From positions 124,001-188,000 of the forward strand of contig NZ_ATWJ01000013.1 of assembly GCF_000421185.1 (NCBI RefSeq): a DNA stretch of 64,000 nt, written 5' to 3'. Position 1 is the stretch's first letter, and each line of letters opens with the position of its first letter. Position numbers and translations under genes: made by a program. The stretch comes from Ornithinimicrobium pekingense DSM 21552 (GTDB lineage Bacteria > Actinomycetota > Actinomycetes > Actinomycetales > Dermatophilaceae). The notes under the pieces were generated by a model. The model had not been told where the DNA came from. It did no database searches and saw only the letters and a list, made by a program, of their open reading frames with translations. Shown here one piece after another: positions 858 through 17,819 of the stretch.

Positions 858-2167
858 CCCTGCTCGTCGTCTCCCCCGACTACGCCTCCCACCTCTTCCC
901 GCTGGCCACCCTGGCCACGGCCTGGCGCGACGCAGGCGAGCGGGTGGTGGTGGCGACGGGCCCGGCGACCGACGCGCTGGTCCGCGGCTTTGGGATGGAG
1001 CGGGTCGACCTGCGGCTGGGGCGAGGGTCCAACCCCGGGGTCATCCGCGCCGAGGAGCAGCCCCGCGGCGAGGACGACGCGCTGCGCGGCTTCTTCGCCG
1101 CCACCCGCCGGGGCCCCGTGGCCACCCTGGCGTTCCAGGCCCGGGCGCGCCGGGACGACCTGCTGTGGGACCCCATCGACACCGCGCGGCGGGTGGAGGA
1201 GGTCGTCAGCCGGGTCCACCCCGACCACGTGCTTGTCGACCACCTGGCCTTCAGCGCGCGGCTGGCGCTGCGGGCCGCCGGCGTCCGGCACGCCGACGTG
1301 GTGCTGGGCCACCCCTCCGCGCTCGTGGTCGGGCACGACGAGGTCTACGGGCTGCCGCCCTCCTGGCCGGCCGCGATGCGACCGCCGGAGGAGGACCTGG
1401 CCGGGCTGCGGACGCTCTGCGAGGAGGTGCGCGACCGCTTCACCGCCGACTGGAACACCGCGCTCACCACCCTCGACCCCGGGGCCCCCGCCAGCCCGGA
1501 CGCCTTCGCCGAGACCGGTGACGTGCTGCTGCTCAACTACCCCGGTGAGCTGCACGAGCCGGGGCGGACCGGCCGGCTCGGGCCGCACGCCTTCCTCGGC
1601 TCGGCCGTCCGCGAGGAGCCGCCGGACAGCGAGGTCGAGCGCTGGCTCGCCTCCTCGGAGGCACCGGTCGTCTACGTCAGCCTGGGCAGCTTCCTGTCGG
1701 TCCGCTCCGACGTCCTCGCCCGCGTCGCCGCGGCGCTGCGCGACCTGGACGTGCGGGTGGCCCTGGCGACCGGCTCGACCGCACCCGCCGACCTCGGACC
1801 GCTCCCGCCGCACTGGCTCGTCCGCCCCGTCCTGCCCCAGGTCACGCTGCTGCGCGCCGCCCGGCTGGCCGTCACCCACGGCGGCAACAACAGCGTGACC
1901 GAGGCGCTGACCGCCGGGGTCCCCCTGCTCGTCCTGCCGCTGTCGACCGACCAGTTCGCGGGCGCCGCCGCCCTCGAGCGCACCGGTCTCGGGCTCGTCC
2001 GCGACCCCAACGTCGCGCCGCCCGAGGAGCTGCGGGAGGCCGTCCTCGGGCTCCTGACGCCGGACGCCGGGCGGGACGCAGCGCTCGCCCGGCTGGCGCA
2101 CGACCTCACGACCCGGCCCGGGCCGCAGCGCGCCCGCGCGGCGCTGCTCGACGGCATACCCGCCTAG
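854..2167 (+). CDS. GT1-like (UGT/MGT-type) glycosyltransferase
   Basis: A 437-residue GT-B protein. The N-terminus ([21 protein letters not shown]) is typical of the UGT/macrolide-glycosyltransferase group, the donor domain begins at [10 protein letters not shown], and [12 protein letters not shown] near residue 340 is the nucleotide-sugar binding H-G-G-x-x-S element, followed by [14 protein letters not shown]. The ATG at 854 is chosen because it overlaps the previous stop by four bases and gives a full-length family member; the frame is open upstream but reads through the GT4 gene. The stop codon shares the bases CTAG with the stop of the convergent hutI gene. Substrates are unknown; a glycoside natural product or cell-surface glycan is possible. 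Confidence 0.85.
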
Positions 2168-3366
2168 ACCTCCAGCGCGCGCACGACCGGCACCCCGACG
2201 CGGTAGGGGATGTGCAGCCAGCTCGGCGCGTCGACGAGCGCGAGGTCGGCGCGCAGGCCGACGGCGACCCGCCCGATGTCGGTGCGGCGCAACGCCTGCG
2301 CGCCGCCGACGGTGGCCGCCCGCAGCGCCTCGGCGGGCGTCATCCCCATCTCCCGGACGGCGAGCGCGATCATCAGCGGCATCGAGGAGGAGTAGCAGGT
2401 GCCGGGGTTGCAGTCGCTGGCGATCGCCACGCGTGCACCGGCGTCGAGCAGCCGCCGCGCGTCGGGGTAGGGCTGGCGCGTCGAGAACTCCACGCCGGGC
2501 AGCAGCGTCGCCACGGTGTCGCTGCCGGCGAGCGCCTCGACGTCGGCGTCGGTGAGGTAGGTGCAGTGGTCGACGCTGGCGGCGCCGAGCTCGACCGCGA
2601 GCTGCGCGCCCGGGCCCTCGCCCAGCTGGTTGCCGTGCACGCGCAGCTCCAGGCCGGCGTCACGCCCCGCCTCCAGCACCCGGCGCGACTCCTGGCCGTC
2701 GAAGGCGTGCGGGCTCGCGGGCTCGCAGAAGACGTCGACCCACCGCGCGTGCGGCGCGCACGCCTGCAGCATCTCGCCGCAGACGAGGTCGAGGTATGCC
2801 GCGCGCCCGGCGGGGTCACGCCGGTCCGGGGGCACCACGTGAGCACCCAGGTAGGTCACCTCGGGGGTGACCTCGCGGGCCAGCCGCAGCGCCCGGACCT
2901 CGTCCTCGACGGTCAGCCCGTAGCCGCTCTTGACCTCCACCGTCGTCGTGCCCTGCGCGCGCATCTCCTGGACGCGGTGCTGCAGGGTGGCCCGCAGCTC
3001 GCCGTCGGTGGCCGCGCGGGTCGCCTCGACCGTGACCGCGATGCCGCCCCCGTCGTAGGGCGTGCCCGACATCCGGGCGGCGAACTCCGCGGAGCGGTCG
3101 CCGGCGAAGACCAGGTGGCTGTGGCTGTCGACGAAGCCGGGCACGACCGAACGGCCCTCCAGGTCGATGGCCCAGTCGGCCGCAGGCGCCTGGGCCGCCG
3201 GCCCCACCCACTCCACGGTCGGGGCGCTGTCCTCCCCGCCTCCGCCGATGACGACCGCGGCGTCGCGCAGGACGCCCAGGCCGGCGTGCAGGGGTTCGTC
3301 GACGGCTCCCTCGGTCGTCGACTCGCAGGTGACGAGCTCGGCGATGCCGGTGATGAGCATGCTCAT
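2164..3366 (-). CDS. hutI: Imidazolonepropionase
   Basis: Third step of histidine degradation: opens the imidazolone ring to give N-formimidoyl-L-glutamate, in the cytoplasm. It is a 400-residue amidohydrolase-superfamily protein. The metal-site motif [11 protein letters not shown], the HGNQLGEG segment, DHCTYLTD and the late SDCNPGT motif with its metal-binding Asp are all visible, in the usual order. The ATG at 3366 lies four bases after the hutF stop; AAGGAA within the hutF end can serve as ribosome site. Last gene of hut operon I (M20 enzyme, kinase, hutF, hutI). No terminator is needed by overlap: the stop shares bases with the convergent glycosyltransferase stop. Confidence 0.95.
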
Positions 3367-3370
3367 GGGC

Positions 3371-4741
3371 TCAGCGTTCCTTCCACAGGGGGGTGATGGC
3401 CTCGTGCAGCAGGCGCCCGACGTCGCCGAGCCGGTGCCTCCTGGCCTCGACGACGACCCGGCCGTCCACGACGACCGTGTCGACGTCGGCGGCCGTGGCC
3501 GCGAGCAGGATCTGGCCGGGGTCGGACCCGGCGGTGCGCACCGTGTCGTCGCGGACGGCGACGAGGTCGGCCCGGGCCCCGACCTCGAGGCGGCCGGCGT
3601 CGGGCCAGCCGATGCTGCCGTGCGCGGTCGCGGCCTCCAGCAGGGCCGCCGGGGCCAGCCGGCCCCGCCGCAGGCTGGCGAGGCGCTCGTGCATCTCCAG
3701 CGCCCGCGCCTCCTCCAGCAGGTCGACGACCGCGTGCTGGTCGGAGCCGAGCGAGAGCCGGGCGCCGGCGTCGCGCAGCGCGACCGCCGGGCCGATGCCG
3801 TCGGCGAGGTCACGCTCGGTGGTGGGGCAGAAGCAGGCCCACGACCGGTGGCCGCCGAGCAGCCCCACGTCCTCGTCGGTCAGGTGGGTGGCGTGGACGG
3901 CCGACAGGTCCGGCCCCAGCACGCCCTCGGCCTCGAGCAGCCCGGCCGGGGTGCGGCCGTGGGCCGCCAGGCAGGCCTCGTTCTCGGCCGGTTGCTCCGA
4001 CAGGTGCACGTGCAGCGGGGTCCCTTCCGCACCGGTGCCGCCGGGGTGCGGCCGCGACCGGGCGGCCGCGGCCACCGCACCCAGCTGGTCGCGCGGCACG
4101 GCCCGCACGGAGTGGACGGCGCCGCCGACCCGCAGGTGCTCCGGGCCCCCGTCGAGGTGGTCGCGCAGCTCGCCGACCCGCGCCGCCCACGCCCCGGCGT
4201 CCCCGTCGCCGAAGCGCAGCTGCGGGCCCTCGAGCGCCGCATACCCGTCGGCGCCGAGCCCGCCGGAGAGGTAGCAGGTATCCAGCAGCGTCAGCCGGAC
4301 GCCGGCCTCGCACGCGGCCTCGACGAGCGCGTGCCCCATGGCGTTGGCGTCGGCGTAGCGGGTGCCGCCCGGCCCGTGGTGCAGGTAGTGGAACTCCCCG
4401 ACCGCGGTGACGCCGGCCAGCGCCATCTCGGCGTAGGCGGCCCGGGCGAGCGTCAGGTAGCTGTCGGGGTCGAGCTGGGCGGCGACGGCATACATGCCCT
4501 CGCGCCAGGTCCAGAAGGTGCCGCCCCCGGCGTGCGTGCGCCCGCGCAGCGCCCGGTGGAAGGCGTGGCTGTGGCTGTTGGCCAGGCCGGGCAGCACGAC
4601 CCCGGGCAGGACCCGGTCGCCCGCCTCGGCGGACCGACCGGCGTCCACGGCGGTGAACCGGCCGTCCTCGATGGTCAGGCGCACGTCCCGCGCGGGGCCG
4701 TCGGGCAGGTGGGCGTGCGCGGCGAACCAGGTCGTGCTCAC
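3371..4741 (-). CDS. hutF: Formimidoylglutamate deiminase
   Basis: Converts N-formimidoyl-L-glutamate to N-formyl-L-glutamate and ammonia, the branch of histidine degradation used by pseudomonads and many actinobacteria. About 456 residues, amidohydrolase fold: [12 protein letters not shown] (H-x-H metal site), [30 protein letters not shown] and [18 protein letters not shown] are characteristic of HutF. The GTG at 4741 overlaps the stop of the kinase gene (GTGA), which fixes the start. It sits directly upstream of hutI in the same operon. Confidence 0.95.
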
Positions 4742-5229
4742 CGTTCGCCCCCGGTGGACGGTGCGGCGGCGAGCGCGTCGACGCGGTCCACGACCTCGTC
4801 CGGGGCCAGCTCGGAGGTGTCGAGGACGAGGTCGGCGCCCCGGCGCAGCAGCGGCTCGTAGCGCTCCTGGTCGGCGCGCACCCGCTCGAGCTCGCCGGGC
4901 TCCTTGCCGAAGTCGTTGCCGGGCCGCACGCCCAGCCGCTCCCGCAGGACGGGCCACGGCGCGACCAGCACGACCACGTGGTCGACGAGGGGGTAGAGCT
5001 CGGCCTGCCCGTCGCCGGTCGCCGCGACGACGAGCGGCCGGTCGTGCCGCGGCTGCTGCAGGATCGCCCGGATCTCCGGCAGACGCAGGTCGGTGCGGTC
5101 GGGGTGCTCGTCGACGAGGCCGTCCTCGTCGGTGTCCACGGTGCGCCAGCCCCGCCCCCGCAGCGCCTCCAGGACCGTCGACTTGCCGGTGCCGGACATG
5201 CCGGTGAGCAGCACCTTCGTGGCCGTCAT
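4738..5229 (-). CDS. P-loop kinase-like ATPase inside the hut operon
   Basis: A 163-residue protein opening MTATKVLLTGMSGTGKSTVLEAL, where GMSGTGKST is a Walker A loop, followed by WRTVDTDEDG, an acidic DxD segment like the substrate site of shikimate/gluconate/cytidylate-type kinases. VVAATGD and LVDHVVVLVAPWPVLRERL resemble the lid region of small-molecule kinases. It overlaps both neighbours by four bases (ATGA upstream, GTGA downstream), so it is translated with the M20 enzyme and HutF. No kinase is needed in the known hut pathway, so the substrate is unknown. A phosphotransfer or regulatory role is inference. Confidence 0.75.
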   Translation of the reverse strand: MTATKVLLTGMSGTGKSTVLEALRGRGWRTVDTDEDGLVDEHPDRTDLRLPEIRAILQQPRHDRPLVVAATGDGQAELYPLVDHVVVLVAPWPVLRERLGVRPGNDFGKEPGELERVRADQERYEPLLRRGADLVLDTSELAPDEVVDRVDALAAAPSTGGER

Positions 5230-6524
5230 GCCGCCCCGTCCTGCGGCCCGTCGCCGGTCGTCGCGCCACCGGTCGTCAGGTCGCGCAGGCAGTCGGCGAG
5301 CGCGGCGACCCCGGCGTGGCAGTCGGCGGCCTCGGCGTGCTCGGCCGGGCTGTGCGAGACCCCGGTCGGGTTGCGCACGAAGAGCATGGTGCTCGGCACG
5401 CCCGCGGTGGCCAGGATGCCGGCGTCGTGGCCGGCACCGGTGCCCAGGACCGGCGCGGAGACCTCGGCGTCGCGGTCGAGCACGCGACGCAGGCGCTCGC
5501 TCAGGCCCTGGTCGAAGCGGGTGGTCGGCGTCCAGCTCTCCCGCGTGACCGTCGCGCCCATCTCCTCGCCGCGGGCCGTGAGCTCGGCGACCGTCGCGAC
5601 CACCTGCTCCTCGTCGGCGCCGCGGGCGTCGAGCCAGCCGGTGACGTGGGAGGGTATGGCGTTCACGCCGCCGGGGGTGACGTGCACCTTGCCGACCGTG
5701 GCCACGCACCCGCGCTGCGTGGCGACGTGGCGCGCCCCGAGGACGAGGTCGGCATACCCGAGCATGGCGTCGCGGCGGTCCTGCAGACGCGTGGTGCCGG
5801 CGTGGTTGGCCTCGCCAGGGAAGTCGAAGCGCCACCGTCCGTGCGGCCAGATGTCGCTGGCGACGGCGACCGGGGCGCCGAGGTCGACGAGCGCGCGCCC
5901 CTGCTCCACGTGCAGCTCGACGAAGGCGCCGACACGGGCGAGCGTCTGCGGGTCGGGTCCGAGATCGTCCGGGTCGCGGCCGGCGGCGCGCAAGGCCTCG
6001 GCGTAGGTGGTGCCGTCGGCGTCGGTGAGGGCGAGGGCCCTGGCCGGGTCGAGCTGGCCGGTGAGCACGCGCGACCCGGCGCAGGCGATGCCGAAGCGGG
6101 CGCCCTCCTCGTCGACGAAGTTGGTGACGGCGACGGGCACCTGCGGCCGCACCCCCGCCTCGCGGAGCCGGTCGACCGCGGCGAGCGCGGAGACGACGCC
6201 GAGCGGGCCGTCGAAGGCGCCGCCGTCCGGCACGGAGTCGAGGTGGGAGCCGGTGACGACCGCCCGGCGGCCGGCGGCCACGGCGTCGTCGACCGTGCCC
6301 GGCCCGTCCCACCACCAGCCCCACTGGTTGCCGACGCGGTCGGTGGTCAGCTCCAGCCCCCGGCGGGCGCACTCGCCGGCGAACCACTCGCGCAGCGTGT
6401 GGTCCTCGGCCGTCCAGGCGAAGCGGCGGTAGCCGCCGCTGCGCGCCTGCCCGACGGACTCCAGGTCTGACCACATGGCGTCGAAGGCCGCCAGGCTGCC
6501 GCTCCCGCTCCTGCGTGCGCTCAC
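5226..6524 (-). CDS. M20-family amidohydrolase (AllC/N-carbamoylase-like), hut operon
   Basis: A 432-residue zinc amidohydrolase of the allantoate amidohydrolase/N-carbamoyl-L-amino-acid hydrolase group. Metal ligands are visible in GSHLDSVPDGGAFDGPLG, NFVDEEGARFG and ELHVEQG; ANHAGTT belongs to the dimerisation/substrate domain; GAGHDAG and VSHSPAEHA close the active site. First gene of hut operon I. The start is GTG at 6524; a -10 box TAGAGT ends seven bases before it, so the mRNA is probably leaderless. The hut dyad lies at 6580-6595. Because no HutG is seen, this enzyme is a good candidate for N-formylglutamate deformylation; allantoate or another N-carbamoyl substrate remains possible. 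Confidence 0.8.
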   Translation of the reverse strand: MSARRSGSGSLAAFDAMWSDLESVGQARSGGYRRFAWTAEDHTLREWFAGECARRGLELTTDRVGNQWGWWWDGPGTVDDAVAAGRRAVVTGSHLDSVPDGGAFDGPLGVVSALAAVDRLREAGVRPQVPVAVTNFVDEEGARFGIACAGSRVLTGQLDPARALALTDADGTTYAEALRAAGRDPDDLGPDPQTLARVGAFVELHVEQGRALVDLGAPVAVASDIWPHGRWRFDFPGEANHAGTTRLQDRRDAMLGYADLVLGARHVATQRGCVATVGKVHVTPGGVNAIPSHVTGWLDARGADEEQVVATVAELTARGEEMGATVTRESWTPTTRFDQGLSERLRRVLDRDAEVSAPVLGTGAGHDAGILATAGVPSTMLFVRNPTGVSHSPAEHAEAADCHAGVAALADCLRDLTTGGATTGDGPQDGAA

Positions 6525-6579
6525 GGGTCCGACTCTAGGAGGGAGCCTGGGGTCGCGTCGGCCCGCCCCGCCAGGACGC

Positions 6580-6595
6580 GTCCGGGATGTGAGAC
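6580..6595. promoter_or_regulatory. Candidate hut operator, site 1
   Basis: GTCCGGGATGTGAGAC, an imperfect dyad centred about 63 bases upstream of the GTG of the M20-kinase-hutF-hutI operon. Near-identical 16-mers precede hutU (12092) and hutH (14993). The distance from the presumed leaderless start suits an activator site, though this is inference. Confidence 0.6.
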
Positions 6596-6614
6596 CCGGC
6601 GGGCGGGGCAGCCG

Positions 6615-7151
6615 TCAGGTGGTCGCGCCGGGCGCCCGCAGGCGCGAGGTGATGTCGGCGCACTCGAGGCAGACGTCCTCCGGCACCACGCCCGCCCGCA
6701 TGAGCCAGCCGAAGACGACGCACCCCACGCACAGGCCGGCCAGCGCCTCGAGCGCCGGGAAGACGGCCATGACGACGGCGACGACCAGCACCGCGGTGCC
6801 GAGCCAGGCCGCACCGGTGGCCAGGTGCAGCAGCCACAGCACGGAGGCGAGGCCCGTCAGGACCGCACCGACGGCGGCGGCGAAGCGCTTGGGGGTGCCG
6901 GCGGTCGGGTGCGGCAGGGCCGGGACGCGCGGCCGCACCCAGCGGCTCACCACGCGGGCGAGGGGGCTGACCCGGGGGCCGAGGGTCGCACGGAGGGTGA
7001 AGTCTGCCGCGAGCGGCAGGAAGACCCACCACTGCTGCAGGGCGAGCATGAGCAGGACGGCGAGGAGGACGACCCCGGCGGTCAGCCGGGCGGTCACCTC
7101 GTCGACGACGGCGGGGAAGCGTGAGCGCATCACCACATGATGCATCACCAT
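6615..7151 (-). CDS. DUF4395-type integral membrane protein
   Basis: About 178 residues. Two hydrophobic stretches follow a short N-terminus (LTAGVVLLAVLLMLALQQ and WVFLPLAADFTLR), then a basic loop with WVRPRVPALPHPTAGTPKRFA, then two more hydrophobic stretches. Cysteine pairs near the end (LCVGC and CLEC) fit the DUF4395 family, whose members are often linked to thioredoxin-like proteins. Function unknown. Several in-frame ATGs (7151, 7145, 7130) are possible and none has a clear ribosome site; the first is given. The short AT-rich stretch at 7130-7165 is the likely divergent promoter region shared with the YbaK gene. Confidence 0.65.
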   Translation of the reverse strand: MVMHHVVMRSRFPAVVDEVTARLTAGVVLLAVLLMLALQQWWVFLPLAADFTLRATLGPRVSPLARVVSRWVRPRVPALPHPTAGTPKRFAAAVGAVLTGLASVLWLLHLATGAAWLGTAVLVVAVVMAVFPALEALAGLCVGCVVFGWLMRAGVVPEDVCLECADITSRLRAPGATT

Positions 7152-7202
7152 AGCAGTCGTTATGAAATCGCGAGGTGGGCGCACCGGCGGTAGCGTGCGC
7201 CC

Positions 7203-7685
7203 ATGAGCGAGGAACGGGCCCTGCACGCGGTCGTGGCCAGCGGTCTGCCCTACGCGGTCACGCGGCACGGTCGCGTCGGGAGCCTGGCGGAGGCTGCGGC
7301 CGTCCGCGGCGTGGAGCCGCGCGACATCGTCAAGACGCTGGTGGTGCGGCGCGCCGAGGGCGACTACCTCTTCGTCCTCGTGCCCGGCGACCGCGAGATC
7401 GCCTGGCCCAAGCTGCGCGAGCTGCTCGGGGTCAGCCGGCTGTCGATGCCGGAGGCCGCGGTGGCCCAGGAGGCGACGGGCTACGAGCGCGGGACGATCA
7501 CGCCCTTCGGGTCGACGACGGCGTGGCCGGTGGTGGCGGACGCCTCGCTCACCGGTGACCCGCAGCGCAGGATCTCGGTCGGTGCCGGTGCGCACGGCGT
7601 CGCTGTCACCGTGGGGGCGGAGGCCGCGCTGGCGTTCTGGGACGCGCAGGTCGCCGACGTCACCGAGCCGCTCGGGACGCCCTGA
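7203..7685 (+). CDS. YbaK/EbsC-family aminoacyl-tRNA editing protein
   Basis: A 160-residue single-domain protein of the YbaK/ProX superfamily, which hydrolyses misacylated tRNAs such as Cys-tRNA(Pro) in trans. Visible family features: VVASGLPYAVTRH near the N-terminus, RDIVKTLVVR with the conserved substrate-contacting lysine, the loop LVPGDREI, and ISVGAGAHGVAVTV near the C-terminus. TAGCGT at 7191-7196 is followed by six bases and then the ATG, so the message is probably leaderless. The stop lies two bases from the convergent MFS gene stop. Which tRNA is edited cannot be told. Confidence 0.85.
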   Translation: MSEERALHAVVASGLPYAVTRHGRVGSLAEAAAVRGVEPRDIVKTLVVRRAEGDYLFVLVPGDREIAWPKLRELLGVSRLSMPEAAVAQEATGYERGTITPFGSTTAWPVVADASLTGDPQRRISVGAGAHGVAVTVGAEAALAFWDAQVADVTEPLGTP

Positions 7686-7687
7686 CC

Positions 7688-8998
7688 TCAGCCCTTGCTG
7701 ACGTCGGGCAGGGTCCGGGCGACCCCGACGCCGACGAGACCCAGGGCCGCGAGGAAGACGAGCGCGGCGACCGGGCCGAGCAGCGCGAGCGCGCTGGAGG
7801 CGGCCCCCACGACCAGCAGCAGCACGCCGATCGCGGTGTTGGAGACCGCGACATAGCTGGTGCGCCGCTCCTCCCCCGCCATGTCCACCACGTAGGTCTT
7901 GCGGGCGACGCGCACGCCGGTGTGGGCCAGGGCCAGCAGCAGGTAGGTCACGGGGTAGAGCCACCACGTCCCCCGCGTCGCCGGCCACAGGTGCAGGCCC
8001 AGGAAGGCCACCACCAGCACGCTCGCCCCGGCGGCCGCACCGGTCATCAGGCGCTGGGAGGACCGGTCGGCCCACCGCCCGAAGAAGCGGCCGCCGACGA
8101 GCCCGGCGACGCCCTGGGCGATGACGAAGGGGCCCAGCCCCGCCAGGCTGGTCTCGCCCTCCTGCGCCGCGAGCGCGACGACGAAGGGCGGCGACAGGGC
8201 CGAGACCAGCAGCAGCCCCCGCGCCCAGACGAACCTGCGGAACGGTGCGTCCTCGCGCAGCAGCCGCCACGAGGTGGTGACCCACCCCTCCTGGTCGGAC
8301 GCCTCCACCGGCTCACCCTCGGGCTCACGGACCGCGGCGTAGACCGCCAGGGCCAGCACCCACGCTCCCGCGGCCGCGCCGAGCAGGACCGCCAGGACCG
8401 TGACGCCGACCTCGTCCCCGCCGAGCACGCGGATGCCGAGGCCCAGGGTGATGGCCACGGCGCCGGAGAGCAGCGTCGACAGACCGTTGATCTGCCCGCG
8501 CTCCCCCTTGGGCACGGTGCGGCCCAGGACGTCCTTGCCGGCGAGGGAGCTCAACGAGCGGGACAGCGAGAAGACGCCCAGGAGCAGCACCACGGCCACG
8601 CCGGCCGCCCAGCCGGTGAGGCCGGCGACCGCGAGCGCCATACCCGCGGTGGAGACGGCCTGGCCTGCCGCGCCCCACAGCCAGAAGTGCCGCCGCCGGG
8701 CCGAGCGCTGCAGCACCGGCGACATCGCCGCCTGCGGCAGCATCGAGCCGGACTCCCGGACGGGCACGAGCAGGCCCAGCACGGCGGCCGGGGCACCGAC
8801 GGCGGTCAGCGCCCACGGCAGCACGGTCTTGGCGTTGACGACCTGGTCGCCGGTGGCCTGCAGGGTGTTGGCCGCGATCTGCAGCAGGCCGTTGCGCCCG
8901 GTGCTCCGCTGCTCCTCGAGGTCCTGGTCGTCCCGGTCGGCGCGGACGAGGGCCTGGTAGAGGCGGGCGGTCGAGGTCACCGGGTCATCGTGCCGCAC
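7688..8998 (-). CDS. Major facilitator superfamily transporter
   Basis: A roughly 436-residue polytopic protein with about 12 hydrophobic segments, a hydrophilic central loop (EPEGEPVEASDQEG) and short basic loops between helices 2 and 3 (LQRSARRRH). The GTG at 8998 begins ten bases after the stop of the YjiH-type gene, so it may be the third gene of hut operon II; a second GTG at 8980 is also possible and neither has a strong ribosome site. Substrate unknown. The position makes transport of histidine, urocanate or a breakdown product a testable idea, not a conclusion. Confidence 0.8.
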   Translation of the reverse strand: MRHDDPVTSTARLYQALVRADRDDQDLEEQRSTGRNGLLQIAANTLQATGDQVVNAKTVLPWALTAVGAPAAVLGLLVPVRESGSMLPQAAMSPVLQRSARRRHFWLWGAAGQAVSTAGMALAVAGLTGWAAGVAVVLLLGVFSLSRSLSSLAGKDVLGRTVPKGERGQINGLSTLLSGAVAITLGLGIRVLGGDEVGVTVLAVLLGAAAGAWVLALAVYAAVREPEGEPVEASDQEGWVTTSWRLLREDAPFRRFVWARGLLLVSALSPPFVVALAAQEGETSLAGLGPFVIAQGVAGLVGGRFFGRWADRSSQRLMTGAAAGASVLVVAFLGLHLWPATRGTWWLYPVTYLLLALAHTGVRVARKTYVVDMAGEERRTSYVAVSNTAIGVLLLVVGAASSALALLGPVAALVFLAALGLVGVGVARTLPDVSKG

Positions 8999-9008
8999 GA
9001 CCCGGCCG

Positions 9009-10327
9009 CTAGAAGAGCCAGAGCGCCAGCGGGATCGCCAGCACCAGGCTCAGCGCGACCCGGACGAACCAGATGGCCAGCAGCCGCGGGATCGAGACCG
9101 GGATCTGGGTGCCGAGCAGGCTGGGCACCATCGCGGAGAAGAAGATGACCTGGGAGACGCAGACGACCGCGACGACGAACTTCACCGACATCGCCGACTC
9201 CGTGACCAGCGCGGCCGGCAGGAACATCTCGGAGATGCCCAGCGCGGCGGCCTTGGCCACCAGCAGCGGCTCGGGGATCTGCAGGGCCCAGGTGATCGGG
9301 TAGAAGAGGTAGCCCAGCCAGTCGAAGACCGGGGTGTACTTGGCCAGGACGAGGCCGATGAGCCCGACCGACAGGATCGAGGGCAGGATCGCCATCGCCA
9401 TGAGCACGCCGTCCTTGAGGTTGGCCAGGACCGTGCGCCCGACGCCGGGGTCGGCGGCGACGGTCGCCCGGGCGGCCCGCCAGGCGGCGCCCAGCCGGGA
9501 CCCCTCGGGGTCCTGCTCCGGCCGCGGCGTGACGCCGGGGGCGTAGTCGTCGGGCTCGCGGGACAGCGGCCAGACCCGCACGGTGACCGCGGTCACCAGG
9601 AAGGTGATGACCAGGGTGGACCAGAAGTAGAGGGTCCAGTGGCCCATGAGGTCCAGGGCGCCGGCCACGACGATCATGAACGTGGCCGACACCGTGGAGA
9701 AGCCGGTGGCGATGGTCATCGACTCGCGGCGGTTGTACTTGCCCTCGAGGTAGACCCGGTTGGTGATGAGCAGCGCCAGGGAGTATGACCCCACGAAGCT
9801 GGCGACCGCGTCGATCGCCGAGCGCCCCGGCGTGCGGAAGACCGGCACCATGAACGGGCGCACCAGCACCCCGACCAGCTCCATCAGCCCGTAGCCCACG
9901 AGCAGCGCCAGGAAGACCGCCCCGATCGGCACGAGCAGCCCGACCGGGATGACCAGGGCGTTGAGCAGGAACGGGCCCATGTCGTCCTCGAAGAGCCACG
10001 CCGGTCCGACCCCGAGGACGAGCATCACGCCGACGACCAGGCCCAGGACGCGCAGGACCGAGAAGACCGTGGTCGTGCGGTCGCGGCGCCAGGTGCCGGA
10101 CACCCAGGGGTATGCCGCACCCGCGGCGATGAGCGCGAGCGCGTACCACGGCAGGACCGCGGGGATCTCCGCGCGCAGCCAACTGACGACGTGGTCCAGC
10201 GGGATCGTGCTCCTGTCGCCGATGGTGACCGGCACGAAGAACATGAGGATGCCGATCGCGGACAGGACGAAGAACTTCCACATCGCCGGCTTGCCGGTCC
10301 CGACCTGCTGGTCGGAGGTGGCGGTGC

Positions 10328-10331
<4 letters not shown>
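9009..10331 (-). CDS. YjiH-type membrane protein (nucleoside-recognition/Gate domain)
   Basis: A 440-residue integral membrane protein. N-terminus [20 protein letters not shown] precedes the first helix ([18 protein letters not shown]). A Gate-like segment runs through [31 protein letters not shown], and a second hydrophobic half follows a charged loop with [10 protein letters not shown]. Proteins of this group are often found next to histidine-degradation genes in actinobacteria and are assumed to carry histidine or urocanate; that role is unproven. The ATG overlaps the hutU stop (ATGA), so it is translated with urocanase. Confidence 0.8.
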
Positions 10332-11992
<1,661 letters not shown>

Positions 11993-12091
11993 GGGGGTCT
12001 CCTTCGACGGGGGTATGGCGTGGGCCGGGTGGGGCTGACCTCCATCAGACCCTCCGCCCGGCCCGCCGCCAACCCTTCTCGCACACCCGAC

Positions 12092-12107
12092 GTCCGGCAT
12101 GCGAGAC
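12092..12107. promoter_or_regulatory. Candidate hut operator, site 2
   Basis: GTCCGGCATGCGAGAC, same orientation as site 1 relative to its target. It lies 100-115 bases upstream of the hutU ATG, which has a leader with a ribosome site. Thirteen or more of 16 positions agree with sites 1 and 3. Confidence 0.6.
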
Positions 12108-12143
12108 GGCACAGTCTCTCCGCACCCTCCACACCAGCGATTG

Positions 12144-12181
12144 GGACCGAGTAGTGTCGCTATGGCGACGCCGTTCGGTCA
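12144..12181. repeat. Palindromic element, copy 1 (3' side of the broken DUF559 gene)
   Basis: An imperfect hairpin: left arm GACCGAGTAGTGTCG, six-base loop CTATGG, right arm CGACGCCGTTCGGTC. Several mispairs are G-U, as if the folded RNA form were kept. The central part (GTGTCG, loop ending ATGG, CGAC) matches the perfect palindrome at 13249-13286 in the same orientation. The stop of the degraded gene's 3' frame (12179-12181) falls inside it. Confidence 0.7.
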
Positions 12182-13122
12182 CAGTGTCGGCCAGGTCGTG
12201 AGCGCACAGCCCTCCGAGCACGGTCGCGCCCGACCGGCCCACCCCCGGTGGCGCAGCGCGAGGGCGAGCTCACCCGCGACCTCGCACGGCTGGTTGTCCA
12301 GCTCCAGGGGTGTGACGCGAAGGGTCACCTCGCCGCGGCCCGCCGCGCGCCTGTCGCGCCGCCGGTCGACATGGAACCGCTCACCGGCATGCCAAAGACG
12401 GCCGTCGATCTCCACGTTCGTCCTGAAGGTTCGGTTGGTCAGGTCGGTCCTCGTGCGCGGTCCTGCCGCATCGCCTGGCGCGCGAACGGAGGCAGCCCGT
12501 GCGGCCGACGGACACGCCCCTCGAACCACGTCTCGGGCAGGCTCTCCGCCCCTTCACCCACCTCCCAGAACGCCAACCGCAGCTCCCGCCGCATCCGATG
12601 CCGGGACCGGCCCTCGAGCTCGCTCAGCAGTGCGACGGCGTCGACCGACCGCTCCTGGCACGCCCGCGCGGCCAGGGCTACGGCGTCGTCGACCGAGCAG
12701 TCAGCCCGGTCGGCGATGTCGATCACGGTCGCCGCCAGGCGGGTGACGGGCAACCCGTCCACGCGCACCGGGTCGAGGTGACGACGCCGGACCACACGGA
12801 TCCCCGGCATCGGCTCGGGGTGACGCTCGTGCGGCACCCCGACGCAGAGCTCCGCCGGCGGGGTCCACTCGAGCCGCCACACGTAGGACGCGGAGCGCAG
12901 GAGCAGCACGCTACCGGTGCCGCAGCGGAGCAGGCCGGCCCAGGCCCGCGCATGCCAGTCGACAGAGCCGCTGTGGGTGAGGTAGACGCCGGGGTGGAGC
13001 TGCTGCCAGTCGCCCCGCCGCAGCCGCCACCTCACCCGGGCCGCCGTCATGCCGGAGGCGAGCGCCTGTGCCCGGCTGACCACACGGCTCTGCCGGCGCG
13101 CCAGTCGGTCGAGGTCCACCAC
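12179..13122 (-). pseudogene. Frameshifted AbiEi-antitoxin-like/DUF559 endonuclease-like gene
   Basis: Two frames join to make one protein of a common actinobacterial type. The 5' frame (13122 to 12439) gives an AbiEi-like winged-helix N-terminus: SRAQALASGMTAARVRWRLRRG, then DWQQLHPGVYLTHSG. It ends in LPETWFEGRVRRPHGLPPFARQ and a stop. The 3' frame (about 12480 to 12179) continues with RTDLTNRTF and VEIDGRLWHAG, then ERFHVDRRRDRRAAG and LRVTPLEL, the Vsr/DUF559 nuclease-fold pattern E-x-D-G-x-x-x-H. The shift lies between 12441 and 12480, near a GCACGAGG run. A start at 13122 or 13119 (GTG) is likely. It may be a real inactivation or a sequencing error. Flanked by the two matched palindromes. 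Confidence 0.75.
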
Positions 13123-13248
13123 CCGATGTTGCCGCGGTCAGGGTGCACCTCGCGGCGGTTGTCCACAGAGGGACCGGCGCGTGAGTCCGTTCACACGACC
13201 GAGCGGGGATGTCCACGCGGTGGGCCGTGCGCACCGCGGCACACAGCT

Positions 13249-13286
13249 GGACCGATCGGTGTCGTGATGGCGACACCGATCGGTCC
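13249..13286. repeat. Palindromic element, copy 2 (5' side of the broken DUF559 gene)
   Basis: A perfect 16-bp inverted repeat: left arm GGACCGATCGGTGTCG, loop TGATGG, right arm its exact complement. It matches the element at 12144-12181 in orientation and core. It lies 83 bases beyond the stop of hutH (minus strand), so it could also stop hutH transcription, but there is no T-run. The rest of 13123-13369 shows no gene. Confidence 0.8.
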
Positions 13287-13369
13287 CAGCGACGGCGTTC
13301 GGTAAGGACGATAGACCGCAGGTGGCGGCAGGACGGGTGCGGCGCAGGGGCCGCGGCAGAGGCCGCCCC

Positions 13370-14938
13370 TCAGGCGAGCGGGCCCGTCTGCTGCTCCGCG
13401 GCGGCACGTACGTGACCGTCCAGCACGAGGTCGACGACAGCCTCGATCTCGGGCGAGAGGTGGCGGTCCGGCCCGGGGCCGGCGACACCGGCGCCGCGCA
13501 GCAGGGCCACGACCGCGGCGGTGGCCGGCGCCGGTGCCAGCGGGGCCCGCAGGTCCAGGGCGCGGGCGGCGGTCAGCACCTCGACCGCGAGGACGCGGGC
13601 CAGCCCGTCGACGCTGCGGCGCAGCTTGCGGGCGGCGCCCCAGCCCATCGACACGTGGTCCTCCTGCATGGCCGAGGACGGGATGGAGTCGACGCTGGCC
13701 GGGGCGGCCAGCCGCTTGAGCTCGGAGACGACGGCGGCCTGGGTGTACTGCGCGATCATCAGTCCCGAGTCGGTGCCCGGGTCGTCGGCGAGGAAGGGCG
13801 GCAGACCGTGGCTGCGGGCGACGTCGAGGAAGCGGTCGGTGCGCCGCTCGGCGATGCTCGCCACGTCGGCGGTGACCACCGCGAGGAAGTCGAGGACATG
13901 GGCGACCGGGGCGCCGTGGAAGTTGCCGTTGGACTCCACCCGGCCGTCGAGGGTGACCACGGGGTTGTCCACGGCGGCGGACAGCTCCCGTCCGGCCACC
14001 AGGCGGGCGTGGTCGCAGGTGTCGCGGGCGGAGCCGTGGACCTGCGGCGAGCAGCGCAGCGAGTAGGCGTCCTGGACCCGGGTGCAGGCCTCGGTGCGGT
14101 GGCTCTCCCGGATCGCGCTGCCGCTCATGACCGCGCGGAGGTTGGCCGCCGAGGCTGCCTGGCCCGGATGCGGCCGCAGCGCCTGCAGGTCGGCGGCGAA
14201 GACGTCGTCGGTGCCCAGCTGCCCCTCCACGCTCATCGCGGCGGCGACGTCGGCGGTGGTGAGCAGCGTGCCCAGGTCGTGCAGGGCCAGCACGAGCATG
14301 CCGAGCATGCCGTCGGTGCCGTTGATGAGGGCCAGCCCCTCCTTCTCCGCCAGCTCCACCGGCGTGATCCCCGCGGCGGCGAGGGCGTCCCCGGCGGCCA
14401 GCAGCTCACCGGACGCGTCACGGACCTGCCCCTCCCCCATCACGGCCAGCGCGCAGTGGGCGAGCGGGGCGAGGTCGCCGGAGCAGCCGAGCGAGCCGTG
14501 CTCGCGGACGACCGGGGTGATGCCGGCGTTGAGGAGCGCGGCATACGCCTGGGCTGTCTCGACCCGCACGCCGGTGCGGCCGGTGGCGAGCGTGGACAGG
14601 CGCAGCAGCATGGTCGCGCGGACCACCTCGCGCTCGACCTCCGGGCCGGAGCCCGCGGCGTGGCTGCGGACCAGGCTGCGCTGCAGCTGGGCGCGCTTCT
14701 CCGGCGGGATGCTGGTGGTGGCCAGGGCGCCGAAGCCGGTGGAGATGCCGTAGTGCGGCTCGGAGTCTCCGGCGAGGCCGTCGATGATCCGGCGGGTCGC
14801 CGCGACCGCCTCGAGCGCGGCGTCGGACAGCCGCACGGGGGCGCCGTGCCGGGCGACGGCGACGACGTCCTCGGGGCTGAGCGGGCCGACGTCGACGGTG
14901 ACCTCGGCGGGCAGGGTGGGGACGGGCAGACGGCTCAT
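13370..14938 (-). CDS. hutH: Histidine ammonia-lyase
   Basis: First step of histidine degradation: non-oxidative deamination to urocanate. 522 residues, MIO-dependent lyase family. GISTGFGAL (residues 64-72) with the catalytic tyrosine just before it, the MIO-forming region GSLGCSGDLAPLAH (148-161), NGTDGMLGM, and the C-terminal SSAMQEDHVSMGW are all present. The prosthetic triad reads Cys-Ser-Gly (152-154) instead of the usual Ala-Ser-Gly; I recall the same variant in Streptomyces HutH. Transcribed alone, with hut operator site 3 centred about 62 bases upstream of the ATG. The IclR gene is one gene away. Confidence 0.95.
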   Translation of the reverse strand: MSRLPVPTLPAEVTVDVGPLSPEDVVAVARHGAPVRLSDAALEAVAATRRIIDGLAGDSEPHYGISTGFGALATTSIPPEKRAQLQRSLVRSHAAGSGPEVEREVVRATMLLRLSTLATGRTGVRVETAQAYAALLNAGITPVVREHGSLGCSGDLAPLAHCALAVMGEGQVRDASGELLAAGDALAAAGITPVELAEKEGLALINGTDGMLGMLVLALHDLGTLLTTADVAAAMSVEGQLGTDDVFAADLQALRPHPGQAASAANLRAVMSGSAIRESHRTEACTRVQDAYSLRCSPQVHGSARDTCDHARLVAGRELSAAVDNPVVTLDGRVESNGNFHGAPVAHVLDFLAVVTADVASIAERRTDRFLDVARSHGLPPFLADDPGTDSGLMIAQYTQAAVVSELKRLAAPASVDSIPSSAMQEDHVSMGWGAARKLRRSVDGLARVLAVEVLTAARALDLRAPLAPAPATAAVVALLRGAGVAGPGPDRHLSPEIEAVVDLVLDGHVRAAAEQQTGPLA

Positions 14939-14992
14939 GGCCCTACTCCACACGACCCGACGAGCCTGCAGCAGCCGCGTGCCCGCTCATTC

Positions 14993-15008
14993 GTCTCACA
15001 TGCCAGAC
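14993..15008. promoter_or_regulatory. Candidate hut operator, site 3
   Basis: GTCTCACATGCCAGAC on the plus strand; its complement GTCTGGCATGTGAGAC is the most symmetric of the three copies (GTCT, central CATG, AGAC). Centred about 62 bases upstream of the hutH ATG, matching the spacing at site 1. Confidence 0.6.
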
Positions 15009-15697: not shown

Positions 15698-16465
15698 GTG
15701 GCCAACGCACCCGCAGCAGCGCACGCGCTCGACGTGCTCATGCTGCTGGCCCGCCACGCCACGCCCCTGCCCGCCGCGACGGTCGCCCGCGAGCTGGGCC
15801 TGCCCCGGTCCACCACCTACCACCTGCTGGCGGTGCTGGCCGAGCGCGGCTTCGTCGTCCACCTGCCCGAGGAACGCCGCTACGGCCTGGGGGTGGCGGC
15901 CTTCGAGCTGGGCTCGGCCTACACCCGGCACGCGCCGCTGCAGCGGCTCGCCCGCCCGGTGCTCGCCCGGCTGGCGGACACCACCGGGCACAACGCCCAC
16001 CTGGGGGCGCTGCACGGGCGCGACGTCGTCTACGTCGTCGAGGAGCGCGTCGCCGGCCGTCCCTCGCTCGTCAGCGACGTCGGCGTCCGGCTGCCGGCCT
16101 CGCTGACGGCGACCGGCCTGGCGATCCTCGCCGCCCTGCCCGCCGCCCAGGTGCGCGCGCTCTTCCCCTCCGCCGACGCGTTCGTCCAGCGGCACGGCGT
16201 CGGGCCCTCGTCGCTGTCCACCCTGCGCCCGCTCCTCGCGCAGGCCCGGACCCGCGGGTATGCCGTGGAGCACGGGTTCGTCACGCCCGGCCTGGACTCC
16301 GTCGCCTCCGCCGTGCTCGACCACTCCGGCCACCCGGTCGCCGGGGTCGCCGTGACCGCCGAGCGCGAGCACCTGAGCCCCGGGGCGGTCGAGGACGTCG
16401 TGACCCAGGTGCGCCGCGCCGCCCTCGAGGTCTCCCGGCGGCTCGGGCACCGGGCACGCCCGTGA
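15698..16465 (+). CDS. IclR-family transcriptional regulator, candidate hut regulator
   Basis: 255 residues. N-terminal winged helix: AAHALDVLMLLARHATPLP, then VARELGLPRSTTYHLLAVLAERGFV as the recognition-helix region; effector domain from about residue 75 with LGSAYTRHAPLQRLARP and VAGVAVTAE near the end. Starts with GTG; CATACT ends six bases before it, suggesting a leaderless mRNA. It is the only one-component regulator in the hut region, and an IclR-type protein (HutR) is known to control hut genes in Corynebacterium. The three hut dyads resemble, from memory, the TCTG-N6-CAGA-type site of that protein. Control of hut genes is therefore likely but inferred. Confidence 0.85.
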   Translation: MANAPAAAHALDVLMLLARHATPLPAATVARELGLPRSTTYHLLAVLAERGFVVHLPEERRYGLGVAAFELGSAYTRHAPLQRLARPVLARLADTTGHNAHLGALHGRDVVYVVEERVAGRPSLVSDVGVRLPASLTATGLAILAALPAAQVRALFPSADAFVQRHGVGPSSLSTLRPLLAQARTRGYAVEHGFVTPGLDSVASAVLDHSGHPVAGVAVTAEREHLSPGAVEDVVTQVRRAALEVSRRLGHRARP

Positions 16466-16532: not shown

Positions 16533-17819
16533 ATGGACATCCTCTGGGGCATCGGCGGCATGCTGGCCCTCATCGCCCTCGGCCTGCTGCTCTCCTCCAA
16601 CCGGCGCCGGGTGCGGTGGCGCACGGTCCTGTCGGCCCTGGCGATCCAGATCGTCTTCGGCGTGCTCGTCCTCTACTGGTCGGCCGGCGTGGCGGTGCTC
16701 GGCACGGTCACCGAGGGCGTGCAGGCCGTCATCAACTCGGCCAACGCCGGCATCAGCTTCCTCTTCGGACCGGTGCTGCCGCAGGGCGAGGACGCGGGCG
16801 TGGTCTTCGCCTTCCAGGTGCTGCCGGTCATCATCTTCTTCGCCTCCCTCACCGCGGTGCTCTACCACTTCGGCATCCTGCAGTTCGTCGTCGAGAAGCT
16901 CGGCGCCGCGCTCGGCTGGGCGCTGGGCACCCGCAAGGCGGAGTCGGTCAACGCCGCCGCCAACATCTTCGTCGGCCAGACCGAGGCGCCCCTGGTCATC
17001 CGGCCCTACCTGCGGGGGCTGTCCCGCTCCGGCCTGTTCGCCGTCATGGTCGGCGGTCTGTCGACGGTGGCCGGCTCGGTGCTCGTCGGCTACTCCCTGC
17101 TCGGCGCCCCGCTGGAGTACCTCATCGCCGCCTCCTTCATGGCCGCCCCCGGCGCGCTGATGATGGCCAAGCTCATCGAGCCCGAGACCGAGGAGGAGGA
17201 CGAGCACGAGGAGCGCGACGGCATACCCGACGGCGAGGAGCCGCGCGAGGAGGAGGCGCACGAGCGCGCCGAGGAGGACGACGACGAGCTCGAGGGTATG
17301 GAGTACCGCAACGTCATCGACGCCGCCGCCTCGGGCGCCGGGGACGGGCTGAAGCTGGCGCTGAACATCGGCGCGATGCTGCTGGCCTTCATCTCCCTCA
17401 TCGCGCTGGTCAACCTGCTGCTCGGGGTGGTGGGCGGCTGGTTCGGCAACCCCGAGCTGACCTTCGAGCAGATCCTGGGCTACGTCTTCGCGCCGCTGAT
17501 GACCGTCATCGGCGTGCCGTGGGCCGAGGCGACGAGCGCCGGCAGCTTCGTGGGGCAGAAGGTGGTCGTCAACGAGTTCGTCGCGTTCAGCAACTTCGCG
17601 CCGACCATCGAGGAGTTCAGCCCCAAGACGGCGGCCATCATCACCTTCGCGCTGACCGGCTTCGCCAACCTGGGTTCCCTGGGCATCCTGCTCGGCGGCC
17701 TCGGCGGGCTCATCCGGCACCGGCGGCGCGAGATCGCCCAGCTGGGCCTGCGCGCGATCGCGGCGGGGACCCTGGCCAACCTGATGAGCGCCACGATCGC
17801 CGGGATCCTCATCGGCTGA
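16533..17819 (+). CDS. NupC-family concentrative nucleoside transporter
   Basis: 428 residues, CNT family, cation-coupled nucleoside uptake across the cell membrane. The family motif GQTEAPLVIRPYL and the later VVVNEFVAFSNFAP are clear; hydrophobic helices occur throughout. Unusual: between helices, residues about 220-255 form a highly acidic insert (ETEEEDEHEERDG, EEPREEEAHERAEEDDDE) that is longer and more charged than the usual loop. TACCGT lies eight bases before the ATG, so the transcript is probably leaderless. Follows the IclR gene by 67 bases in the same direction; no reason to link it with histidine. Confidence 0.9.
   Translation: MDILWGIGGMLALIALGLLLSSNRRRVRWRTVLSALAIQIVFGVLVLYWSAGVAVLGTVTEGVQAVINSANAGISFLFGPVLPQGEDAGVVFAFQVLPVIIFFASLTAVLYHFGILQFVVEKLGAALGWALGTRKAESVNAAANIFVGQTEAPLVIRPYLRGLSRSGLFAVMVGGLSTVAGSVLVGYSLLGAPLEYLIAASFMAAPGALMMAKLIEPETEEEDEHEERDGIPDGEEPREEEAHERAEEDDDELEGMEYRNVIDAAASGAGDGLKLALNIGAMLLAFISLIALVNLLLGVVGGWFGNPELTFEQILGYVFAPLMTVIGVPWAEATSAGSFVGQKVVVNEFVAFSNFAPTIEEFSPKTAAIITFALTGFANLGSLGILLGGLGGLIRHRRREIAQLGLRAIAAGTLANLMSATIAGILIG

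What the first reader, a model, noticed from the sequence alone, without database searches (positions are those of the whole stretch)
6580..15008. One 16-bp dyad marks all three hut transcription units
GTCCGGGATGTGAGAC (6580), GTCCGGCATGCGAGAC (12092) and GTCTGGCATGTGAGAC (14993, minus strand) share at least 13 positions and lie upstream of the M20-kinase-hutF-hutI operon, hutU-yjiH and hutH. No fourth copy was seen. Sites 1 and 3 are centred about 62 bases from the start codon, which equals the transcription start if the mRNAs are leaderless; site 2 fits the same distance from a likely start at about 12037. The symmetry GTCT, CATG, AGAC and the single IclR gene at 15698 point to one activator-type regulator. 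From memory, the IclR-type HutR of Corynebacterium binds a TCTG-N6-CAGA-like site, close to this.
Basis: partly seen in the sequence, partly recalled or inferred. Interest (0 to 1): 0.72.

Follow-up and report, generated by a model that had tools for sequence, protein, structure and literature searches.

The report
HutR activator sites at hut operons
Three copies of one short mirror-symmetric DNA site mark the three histidine-degradation operons of this actinobacterium; comparison with relatives suggests that they are docking sites of a known kind of switch protein (HutR, IclR family), placed at a strikingly fixed distance from the promoter.

Summary
A family-derived consensus, GTCYSNNATNNSRGAC, hits exactly these three places in the 3.85-Mb genome. 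They are very probably operators of HutR, an IclR protein reported to activate hut genes in Corynebacterium resistens (published motif GTCTGWWATWCCAGAC). In 141 hut loci (1.38 Mb), 133 of 134 exact GTCTNNNATNNNAGAC matches lie upstream of hutH, hutU or M20; one lies at hutR alone. A leave-genus-out matrix finds a dyad at hutH in 117 of 130 loci of genomes with HutR (one, G087, without a detected HutR) and 0 of 5 without. HutR recognition-helix residue 42 co-varies with dyad position 4. A -10-like hexamer starts at +50.5 (+/-1) from the dyad centre in 103/111 hutH, 40/41 M20 and 21/29 hutU promoters; most hutH and M20 starts look leaderless. The design recurs outside the family (30 of 35 gene-site pairs) and at kynureninase genes in two genera. 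Activation is inferred from geometry and precedent; binding, effector and start sites are untested. New member of a known kind, with extensions that I did not find in print.

The parts
6580..6595 (.). dyad 1 (predicted HutR operator) upstream of M20-kinase-hutF-hutI
   Evidence: (score 18.7)
12092..12107 (.). dyad 2 (predicted HutR operator) upstream of hutU-yjiH
   Evidence: (score 18.5)
14993..15008 (.). dyad 3 (predicted HutR operator) upstream of hutH
   Evidence: (score 23.1)
6532..6537 (-). -10-like hexamer TAGAGT, first base 50.5 bp from dyad centre; GTG start 7 nt further
   Evidence: sequence; T....T at this place within 1 bp in 40 of 41 M20 promoters
12044..12049 (-). -10-like hexamer TCTGAT, 50.5 bp from dyad centre; predicted start about 12037
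   Evidence: sequence; within 1 bp in 21 of 29 hutU promoters; also in G549 and G550
14945..14950 (-). -10-like hexamer TGGAGT, 50.5 bp from dyad centre; ATG start 6 nt further
   Evidence: sequence; within 1 bp in 103 of 111 hutH promoters
15698..16465 (+). hutR, IclR-family regulator (255 aa), recognition helix PRSTTYHLL with His42
   Evidence: PF01614 and PF09339 above cut-off; orthologue in 135 of 142 family genomes with hutH and 0 of 7 without
13370..14938 (-). hutH, histidine ammonia-lyase
   Evidence: TIGR01225 638 bits, cut-off 539
10328..11992 (-). hutU, urocanate hydratase
   Evidence: TIGR01228 903 bits, cut-off 375
9009..10331 (-). YjiH-like membrane protein (Gate domain) in the hutU unit; candidate transporter
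   Evidence: PF07670 46 bits, cut-off 29.6; relatives in 10 of 141 loci
5226..6524 (-). M20-family amidohydrolase, first gene of the hutF-hutI unit (N-formylglutamate hydrolysis inferred)
   Evidence: NF006770 579 bits, cut-off 372; PF01546
   Evidence: AAA_18, AAA_33 and RapZ-like matches just above cut-off
3371..4744 (-). hutF, formimidoylglutamate deiminase
   Evidence: NF006681 598 bits, cut-off 362
2164..3348 (-). hutI, imidazolonepropionase
   Evidence: TIGR01224 368 bits, cut-off 298

Best explanation
The three dyads are operators of HutR, the IclR-family protein encoded at 15698-16465. A HutR dimer (or pair of dimers) reads the two GTCY half-sites through its recognition helix, residue His42 facing base pair 4 of the half-site. 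Bound about 62 bp upstream of the transcription start, ahead of a poor -35 region, it most likely recruits RNA polymerase to hutH, hutU-yjiH and M20-kinase-hutF-hutI when an intermediate of the pathway (histidine or urocanate) is present, so that the enzymes from histidine to glutamate switch on together. hutH and the M20 unit are read as leaderless mRNAs; hutU has a short leader. Shown by computation: sites, specificity, conservation, spacing, covariation. Inferred: binding, activation, effector, start sites.
For: Specific: 3 of 3 family-consensus hits in the own genome are these sites. Conserved: 133 of 134 exact core matches in 1.38 Mb of 141 loci lie upstream of hutH, hutU or M20; the strict pattern has 163 sites in 149 genomes against 5 for the reversed control. 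Linked to HutR: dyad at hutH in 117 of 130 loci with HutR (G087, whose HutR was not found, is counted there) against 0 of 5 without; in 57 named loci with both genes, 31 have them divergent and adjacent. Linked to this protein's helix: half-sites have T at position 4 in 252 of 260 cases with His42, 15 of 34 with Arg, 16 of 24 with Lys; in 40 loci taken as outside the family His goes with T in 65 of 66, Gln with C in 6 of 6, Glu with C in 4 of 4; 9 of 10 tree-separate non-His clades have a C site in at least one member, against 6 of 121 His sequences. By motif register this residue is the equivalent of TtgV Arg52, which contacts DNA in crystal structure 2XRO (PMC8222616, passages). Promoter-bound: fixed step to a -10-like hexamer, also in 51 of 58 gene-site pairs of the 80 named loci, 30 of 35 in those outside the family. 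Precedent: motif in PMC8222616 Table 1 (passages); [quoted passage not shown] resistens' (PMC4401554, passage).
Against: No binding or expression data. 13 of 130 loci with HutR lack a matrix hit at hutH; 8 of them have a hutU dyad at up to 1 mismatch, 3 a variant dyad at hutH, and in 2 (G082, G110) none was found. G087 has the dyad but no detected HutR (73% complete). The window's dyads 1 and 2 carry C at position 4 in one half although its HutR has His42, and 8 of 25 non-His sequences have no C site, so the residue code is a tendency. Mutual information does not single out residue 42. In the 7 genomes of this genus tested (the window's included) hutR has no dyad of its own. Only two genera underlie the 0 of 5. 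The exact C. resistens consensus had 0 matches in 396 genomes of the phylum, the own one included. M20 starts sit at the predicted transcription start in only 27 of 41. Start sites come from hexamer position, not from RNA mapping.
Confidence: 0.86

Rival explanations
1. HutR binds the dyads but works as a repressor (or as both), released by the inducer.
For: The IclR family holds repressors, activators and dual regulators (PMC8222616, passages). Where a dyad lies near hutR its edge can overlap a -10-like hexamer of hutR (TA at -11.5/-10.5 in 20 of 62, against 0 of 51 control hutH-side sites), which fits repression of hutR itself.
Against: On the enzyme side the dyad ends 42 bp before the -10-like hexamer and covers neither it nor the likely -35; no sigma-70-like promoter was found between 11950 and 15760, the hutU and hutH promoters, which suits promoters that need help; the C. 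resistens protein activates (PMC4401554 passage).
Confidence: 0.1
2. Another regulator, for example the second IclR protein of the genome, binds the dyads; the IclR gene at 15698 serves the neighbouring nupC gene.
For: nupC follows the IclR gene here and in G549 and G550; the genome has a second, distant IclR match.
Against: The orthologue is in 135 of 142 family genomes with hutH and 0 of 7 without, while nupC was found near it in 0 of the other 29 HutR loci (1.5-kb flanks) and 0 of 80 named loci with up to 6 kb; sites vanish where HutR is absent and co-vary with its recognition helix.
Confidence: 0.03
3. The similarity of the three sites is a chance find in GC-rich DNA.
For: At 3 mismatches the window holds no more hits than shuffles.
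Against: Exact match count, leave-genus-out matrix scores, conservation and spacing.
Confidence: 0.01

Closest known systems
HutR (IclR family) of Corynebacterium resistens DSM 45100
   Same: IclR protein encoded with hut genes; 16-bp palindrome GTCTGWWATWCCAGAC with the same GTCT-AT-AGAC frame (site 3 in its better orientation agrees at 13 of 16 positions); activator according to a passage in PMC4401554.
   Different: Here a GC-richer centre, C allowed at position 4, three separate units with an M20-hutF branch instead of hutG, and hutR not adjacent to hutH. Protein identity to the C. resistens protein was not measured.
IclR-family activators PobR, PcaU and PcaR
   Same: Same protein family and GTNCG-type palindromes (PMC8222616, passages).
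   Different: TIGR02431 (PcaR/PcaU/PobR) scores 100 bits, under its cut-off of 284.75.
HutC (GntR family), repressor of hut in proteobacteria
   Same: Same pathway (PMC4401554, passage).
   Different: Different protein family and DNA site (GT-N-TA-N-AC, same passage).

Membership tests
HutR-type IclR regulators of histidine utilization | IclR-family protein | tested here: met
   PF01614 95.9 bits (cut-off 24), PF09339 50 bits (cut-off 22)
HutR-type IclR regulators of histidine utilization | gene goes with hut genes | tested here: met
   window: start 760 bp from the hutH start; family: in 135 of 142 genomes with hutH, 0 of 7 without (two weak matches, G006 and G066, not counted)
HutR-type IclR regulators of histidine utilization | 16-bp palindrome of the frame GTCT..AT..AGAC upstream of hut genes | tested here: met
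   The exact letters of the C. resistens consensus are not used here (0 of 396 genomes)
HutR-type IclR regulators of histidine utilization | sequence orthology to C. resistens HutR | not tested
   that protein sequence was not in hand
HutR-type IclR regulators of histidine utilization | binds the site and activates hut genes | not testable with these tools
   needs bench work
PcaR/PcaU/PobR subfamily (TIGR02431) | passes the curated score | tested here: not met
   100 bits against 284.75

The most novel reading that the evidence does not exclude
HutR and its dyad form a portable activation cassette kept across much of the Actinomycetota: a dyad at about -62, a fixed 50.5-bp step to an unusual TNNNAT-type -10 without a good -35, and a start codon at the transcription start. 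One recognition-helix residue tunes the operator dialect (His42 with T at position 4; Arg, Lys, Gln or Glu admitting or demanding C), switching repeatedly in evolution, and the cassette has been placed in front of kynureninase in two genera, joining tryptophan to histidine breakdown under one regulator.
Probability: 0.55. Interest if true: 0.6.

Novelty: new member of a known kind. Interest (0 to 1): 0.45.

Why it matters
It turns a three-site hint in one genome into a regulon with a stated operator, regulator, promoter geometry and helix-to-base tendency, testable with one purified protein and a few oligonucleotides. The fixed spacing and leaderless-looking starts offer a clean system for class-I-like activation by an IclR protein in actinobacteria, and the kynureninase sites predict an unexpected link between two amino-acid pathways.

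Tried and rejected
Chance was considered and rejected. An nupC-specific role for the IclR gene was rejected: nupC was found near it in G549 and G550 but in 0 of 29 other family loci and 0 of 80 named loci; the first-set stretches end a median 653 bp past hutR and could not test this well. The 1-mismatch place G000:C7:407809 was read; it looks coding to the eye and has no hut gene within 1.5 kb, and was set aside. A replacement regulator was looked for by eye in one HutR-less genome, G011; none was obvious. The exact C. resistens consensus in 396 phylum genomes gave nothing. Amino-acid permease sites (2 genomes) and SBP_bac_3 transporter sites (2 genomes) match the dyad but not the -10 spacing: weak candidates. 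Of the 37 strict sites outside the first regions, by my tally 6 lie at hut genes, 9 at kynureninase, 2 at the permease, 2 at the transporter gene, 18 are unresolved. Of 12 further stretches of the genus, two (G546, G545) hold a dyad with no hut gene. Mutual information ranks residue 42 second overall (with position 6) and second for position 4; the claim rests on the counts and the tree. No structure prediction was run.

Rows dropped: one search left out genes whose tblastn match began after residue 25, HutH or HutU matches under 60% identity, and those with under 150 bp upstream; one search used 111 loci with HutR and a site; one search used 146 sequences; five of the 40 outside loci have no site and were left out. 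The 40 'outside' loci were picked by me from record titles; two (L300, L301) are MAGs whose titles do not settle the family.
Full report
Observation. The three 16-mers stand at 6580, 12092 and 14993 as described. In pairs they share 14 of 16 positions. All three target units run on the minus strand: M20-kinase-hutF-hutI from 6524, hutU-yjiH from 11992, hutH from 14938. Family models confirm hutH, hutU, hutF, hutI and an M20 amidohydrolase, and an IclR protein at 15698-16465. Within the window alone the degenerate pattern at three mismatches is no richer than in shuffles, so the case rests on specificity and comparison.

Specificity. In the whole genome (3.85 Mb, 15 contigs) the pattern of the three sites occurs exactly only at these places, with one further place at one mismatch and nine at two. 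The one-mismatch place looks coding and has no hut gene nearby. A consensus taken from relatives, GTCYSNNATNNSRGAC, hits the genome three times: the same three. In that of 31 genomes of the genus have a match; many have more places than hut units, so the looser pattern is not clean everywhere.

Conservation. 149 genomes of the family were searched: HutH in 142, the IclR protein at E <= 1e-20 in 137, two of which (G006, G066) have only a weak, paralogue-like match; HutU in 139, M20 in 110. Leaving out those two, HutR is in 135 of 142 genomes with hutH and in 0 of 7 without. The seven with hutH but no HutR are G011, G060, G089, G109 (one genus), G036, and G087 and G066, where the assembly is 73% complete or the contig ends nearby. 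I fetched 140 stretches around these genes, 1.38 Mb together with the first 19 kb of the window. GTCTNNNATNNNAGAC occurs exactly 134 times; 133 lie upstream of hutH, hutU or M20 (52 of them shared with hutR), one at hutR alone, all at 8-194 bp from a projected gene start. With one mismatch 50 of 53 lie near such genes. A matrix made without the genus under test finds a dyad within 200 bp of hutH in 117 of 130 loci of genomes with HutR, above the 99.9% level of 1983 coding blocks. In the five hutH loci of genomes without HutR it finds none, nor at the four hutU and four M20 genes testable there; Fisher p = 2.5e-5, but this is only two genera. G087 has the dyad and was counted with the 130. Of the 13 misses, eight have a dyad at hutU at up to one mismatch, three a variant dyad, and in two none was found.

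Whole-genome background in relatives. The strict pattern GTCTSNNATNNSAGAC occurs 163 times in the 149 genomes; the reversed control 5 times (sums typed from the table). 126 lie in the fetched hut loci. Of the other 37, by my tally six are at hut genes, nine at kynureninase (7 of 8 sampled genomes of genus g53 and 2 of 2 of g40, one of which has the contig length of Humibacillus xanthopallidus), two at an amino-acid permease, two at an SBP_bac_3 transporter gene, and 18 are unresolved.

Promoter geometry. Taking the dyad centre as zero and reading towards the gene, a hexamer T....T starts at +50.5, within one base, in 103 of 111 hutH, 40 of 41 M20 and 21 of 29 hutU promoters; the median over offsets is 0 to 1, and the best offset outside this zone holds 20 of 111 for hutH (+45.5). 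ATG or GTG begins at +62.5 or +63.5 in 97 of 111 hutH promoters and at +61.5 to +63.5 in 27 of 41 M20 promoters, so most of these mRNAs are probably leaderless; hutU starts show no such peak. The -35 region is little conserved (a T at +27.5; no sigma-70-like promoter). A dyad at about -62 ahead of a weak promoter is the position from which class I activators work (established knowledge, recalled). In two other species of the genus, G549 and G550, three such sites stand at M20, hutU and hutH with the same spacing within one base.

Which protein. The recognition helix reads PRSTTYHLL in the window. Residue 42 is His in 121 of 146 sequences. Half-sites have T at position 4 in 252 of 260 cases with His42, 15 of 34 with Arg, 16 of 24 with Lys; none of 300 plain shuffles reached the observed mutual information, though residue 42 is not the single best column. 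In 40 named loci taken as outside the family, His goes with T in 65 of 66, Gln (Pseudonocardia) with C in 6 of 6, Glu with C in 4 of 4. On a tree built without that column, non-His appears in 10 separate clades, 9 of which hold a C site in at least one member; 17 of 25 non-His and 6 of 121 His sequences have one. The window's genome is one of those six: its dyads 1 and 2 have a GTCCGG half. By the register Pro-Arg-Ser-Thr the residue matches TtgV Arg52, which contacts DNA in 2XRO (PMC8222616, passages); that register is read from the text, not from a structure alignment. The same paper already reports helix-to-base correlations for the IclR family as a whole.

Reach. Of 64 dyads in these 80 loci, 62 lie next to a hut gene or hutR; 51 of 58 gene-site pairs have the -10-like hexamer at the same place, 30 of 35 in the 40 loci taken as outside the family.

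Autoregulation. Among dyads near hutR, TA stands at -11.5/-10.5 on the hutR side in 20 of 62 cases and in 0 of 51 control sites, which suits a hutR -10 overlapped by the dyad and thus self-repression. In the window's genus no dyad was found at hutR in the 7 genomes tested.

Kynureninase. All nine sites have TACGTT starting at +49.5 to +51.5 and an ATG at +61.5 to +63.5, the design of hutH. Two of the nine proteins were tested and pass TIGR01814; the others share the same N-terminal sequence. I found no mention in print: the main text of PMC8222616 does not contain the word, and none of the 12 papers listed (of 41) in a search for kynureninase with IclR, Actinobacteria and regulon holds it. That HutR and not another IclR protein binds there is inferred from the site alone.

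Known ground. HutR of C. resistens, its motif and its role as activator are in print (PMC8222616, passages and one section; PMC3350403, passages; PMC4401554, passage). The primary paper (PMID 22462578) was not held and I did not read it; whether it maps promoters with this spacing I cannot say. So the finding is a new member of a known kind; the fixed geometry, the residue tendency within HutR and the kynureninase sites are extensions that I did not find in the papers searched.

Noticed in passing
L239, L240, L245-L248, L250-L252: Kynureninase genes in genera g53 and g40 carry a HutR-type dyad with the hutH-like spacing and a leaderless-looking start; beside them lies a gene that looks like pdxT (by eye, not from a search).
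   Followed up: partly
window 12439-13122 (-): An AbiEi_4-type protein gene lies between hutU and hutH, which are close neighbours in the seven other first-set species of the genus with hut genes. hutU has its own dyad here and in G549, G550, G541, G547 and G553.
   Followed up: partly
window 16533-17819 (+): A NupC nucleoside transporter gene follows hutR here and in G549 and G550, but was not found near hutR in 29 other family loci or 80 named loci.
   Followed up: partly
window 9009-10331 (-): YjiH-like Gate-domain membrane protein in the hutU unit; relatives in 10 of 141 loci of four genera, a candidate histidine or urocanate carrier.
   Followed up: no
L084, L127, L154, L155, L173: One genus (g12) keeps hutH, hutU and M20 but has no HutR and no dyad; upstream of M20 in G011 and G060 an inverted repeat around CATACGCAACGG was seen by eye. 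Its hut regulator is unknown.
   Followed up: partly
L226, L227: Amino-acid permease (ProY-like, below the model's cut-off) with a dyad about 100 bp upstream in two genomes of genus g3; -10 spacing not conserved.
   Followed up: partly
L231, L233: In genus g15 a strict dyad with TGGGAT at +50.5 lies just downstream of the IclR gene; its target gene was not identified.
   Followed up: no
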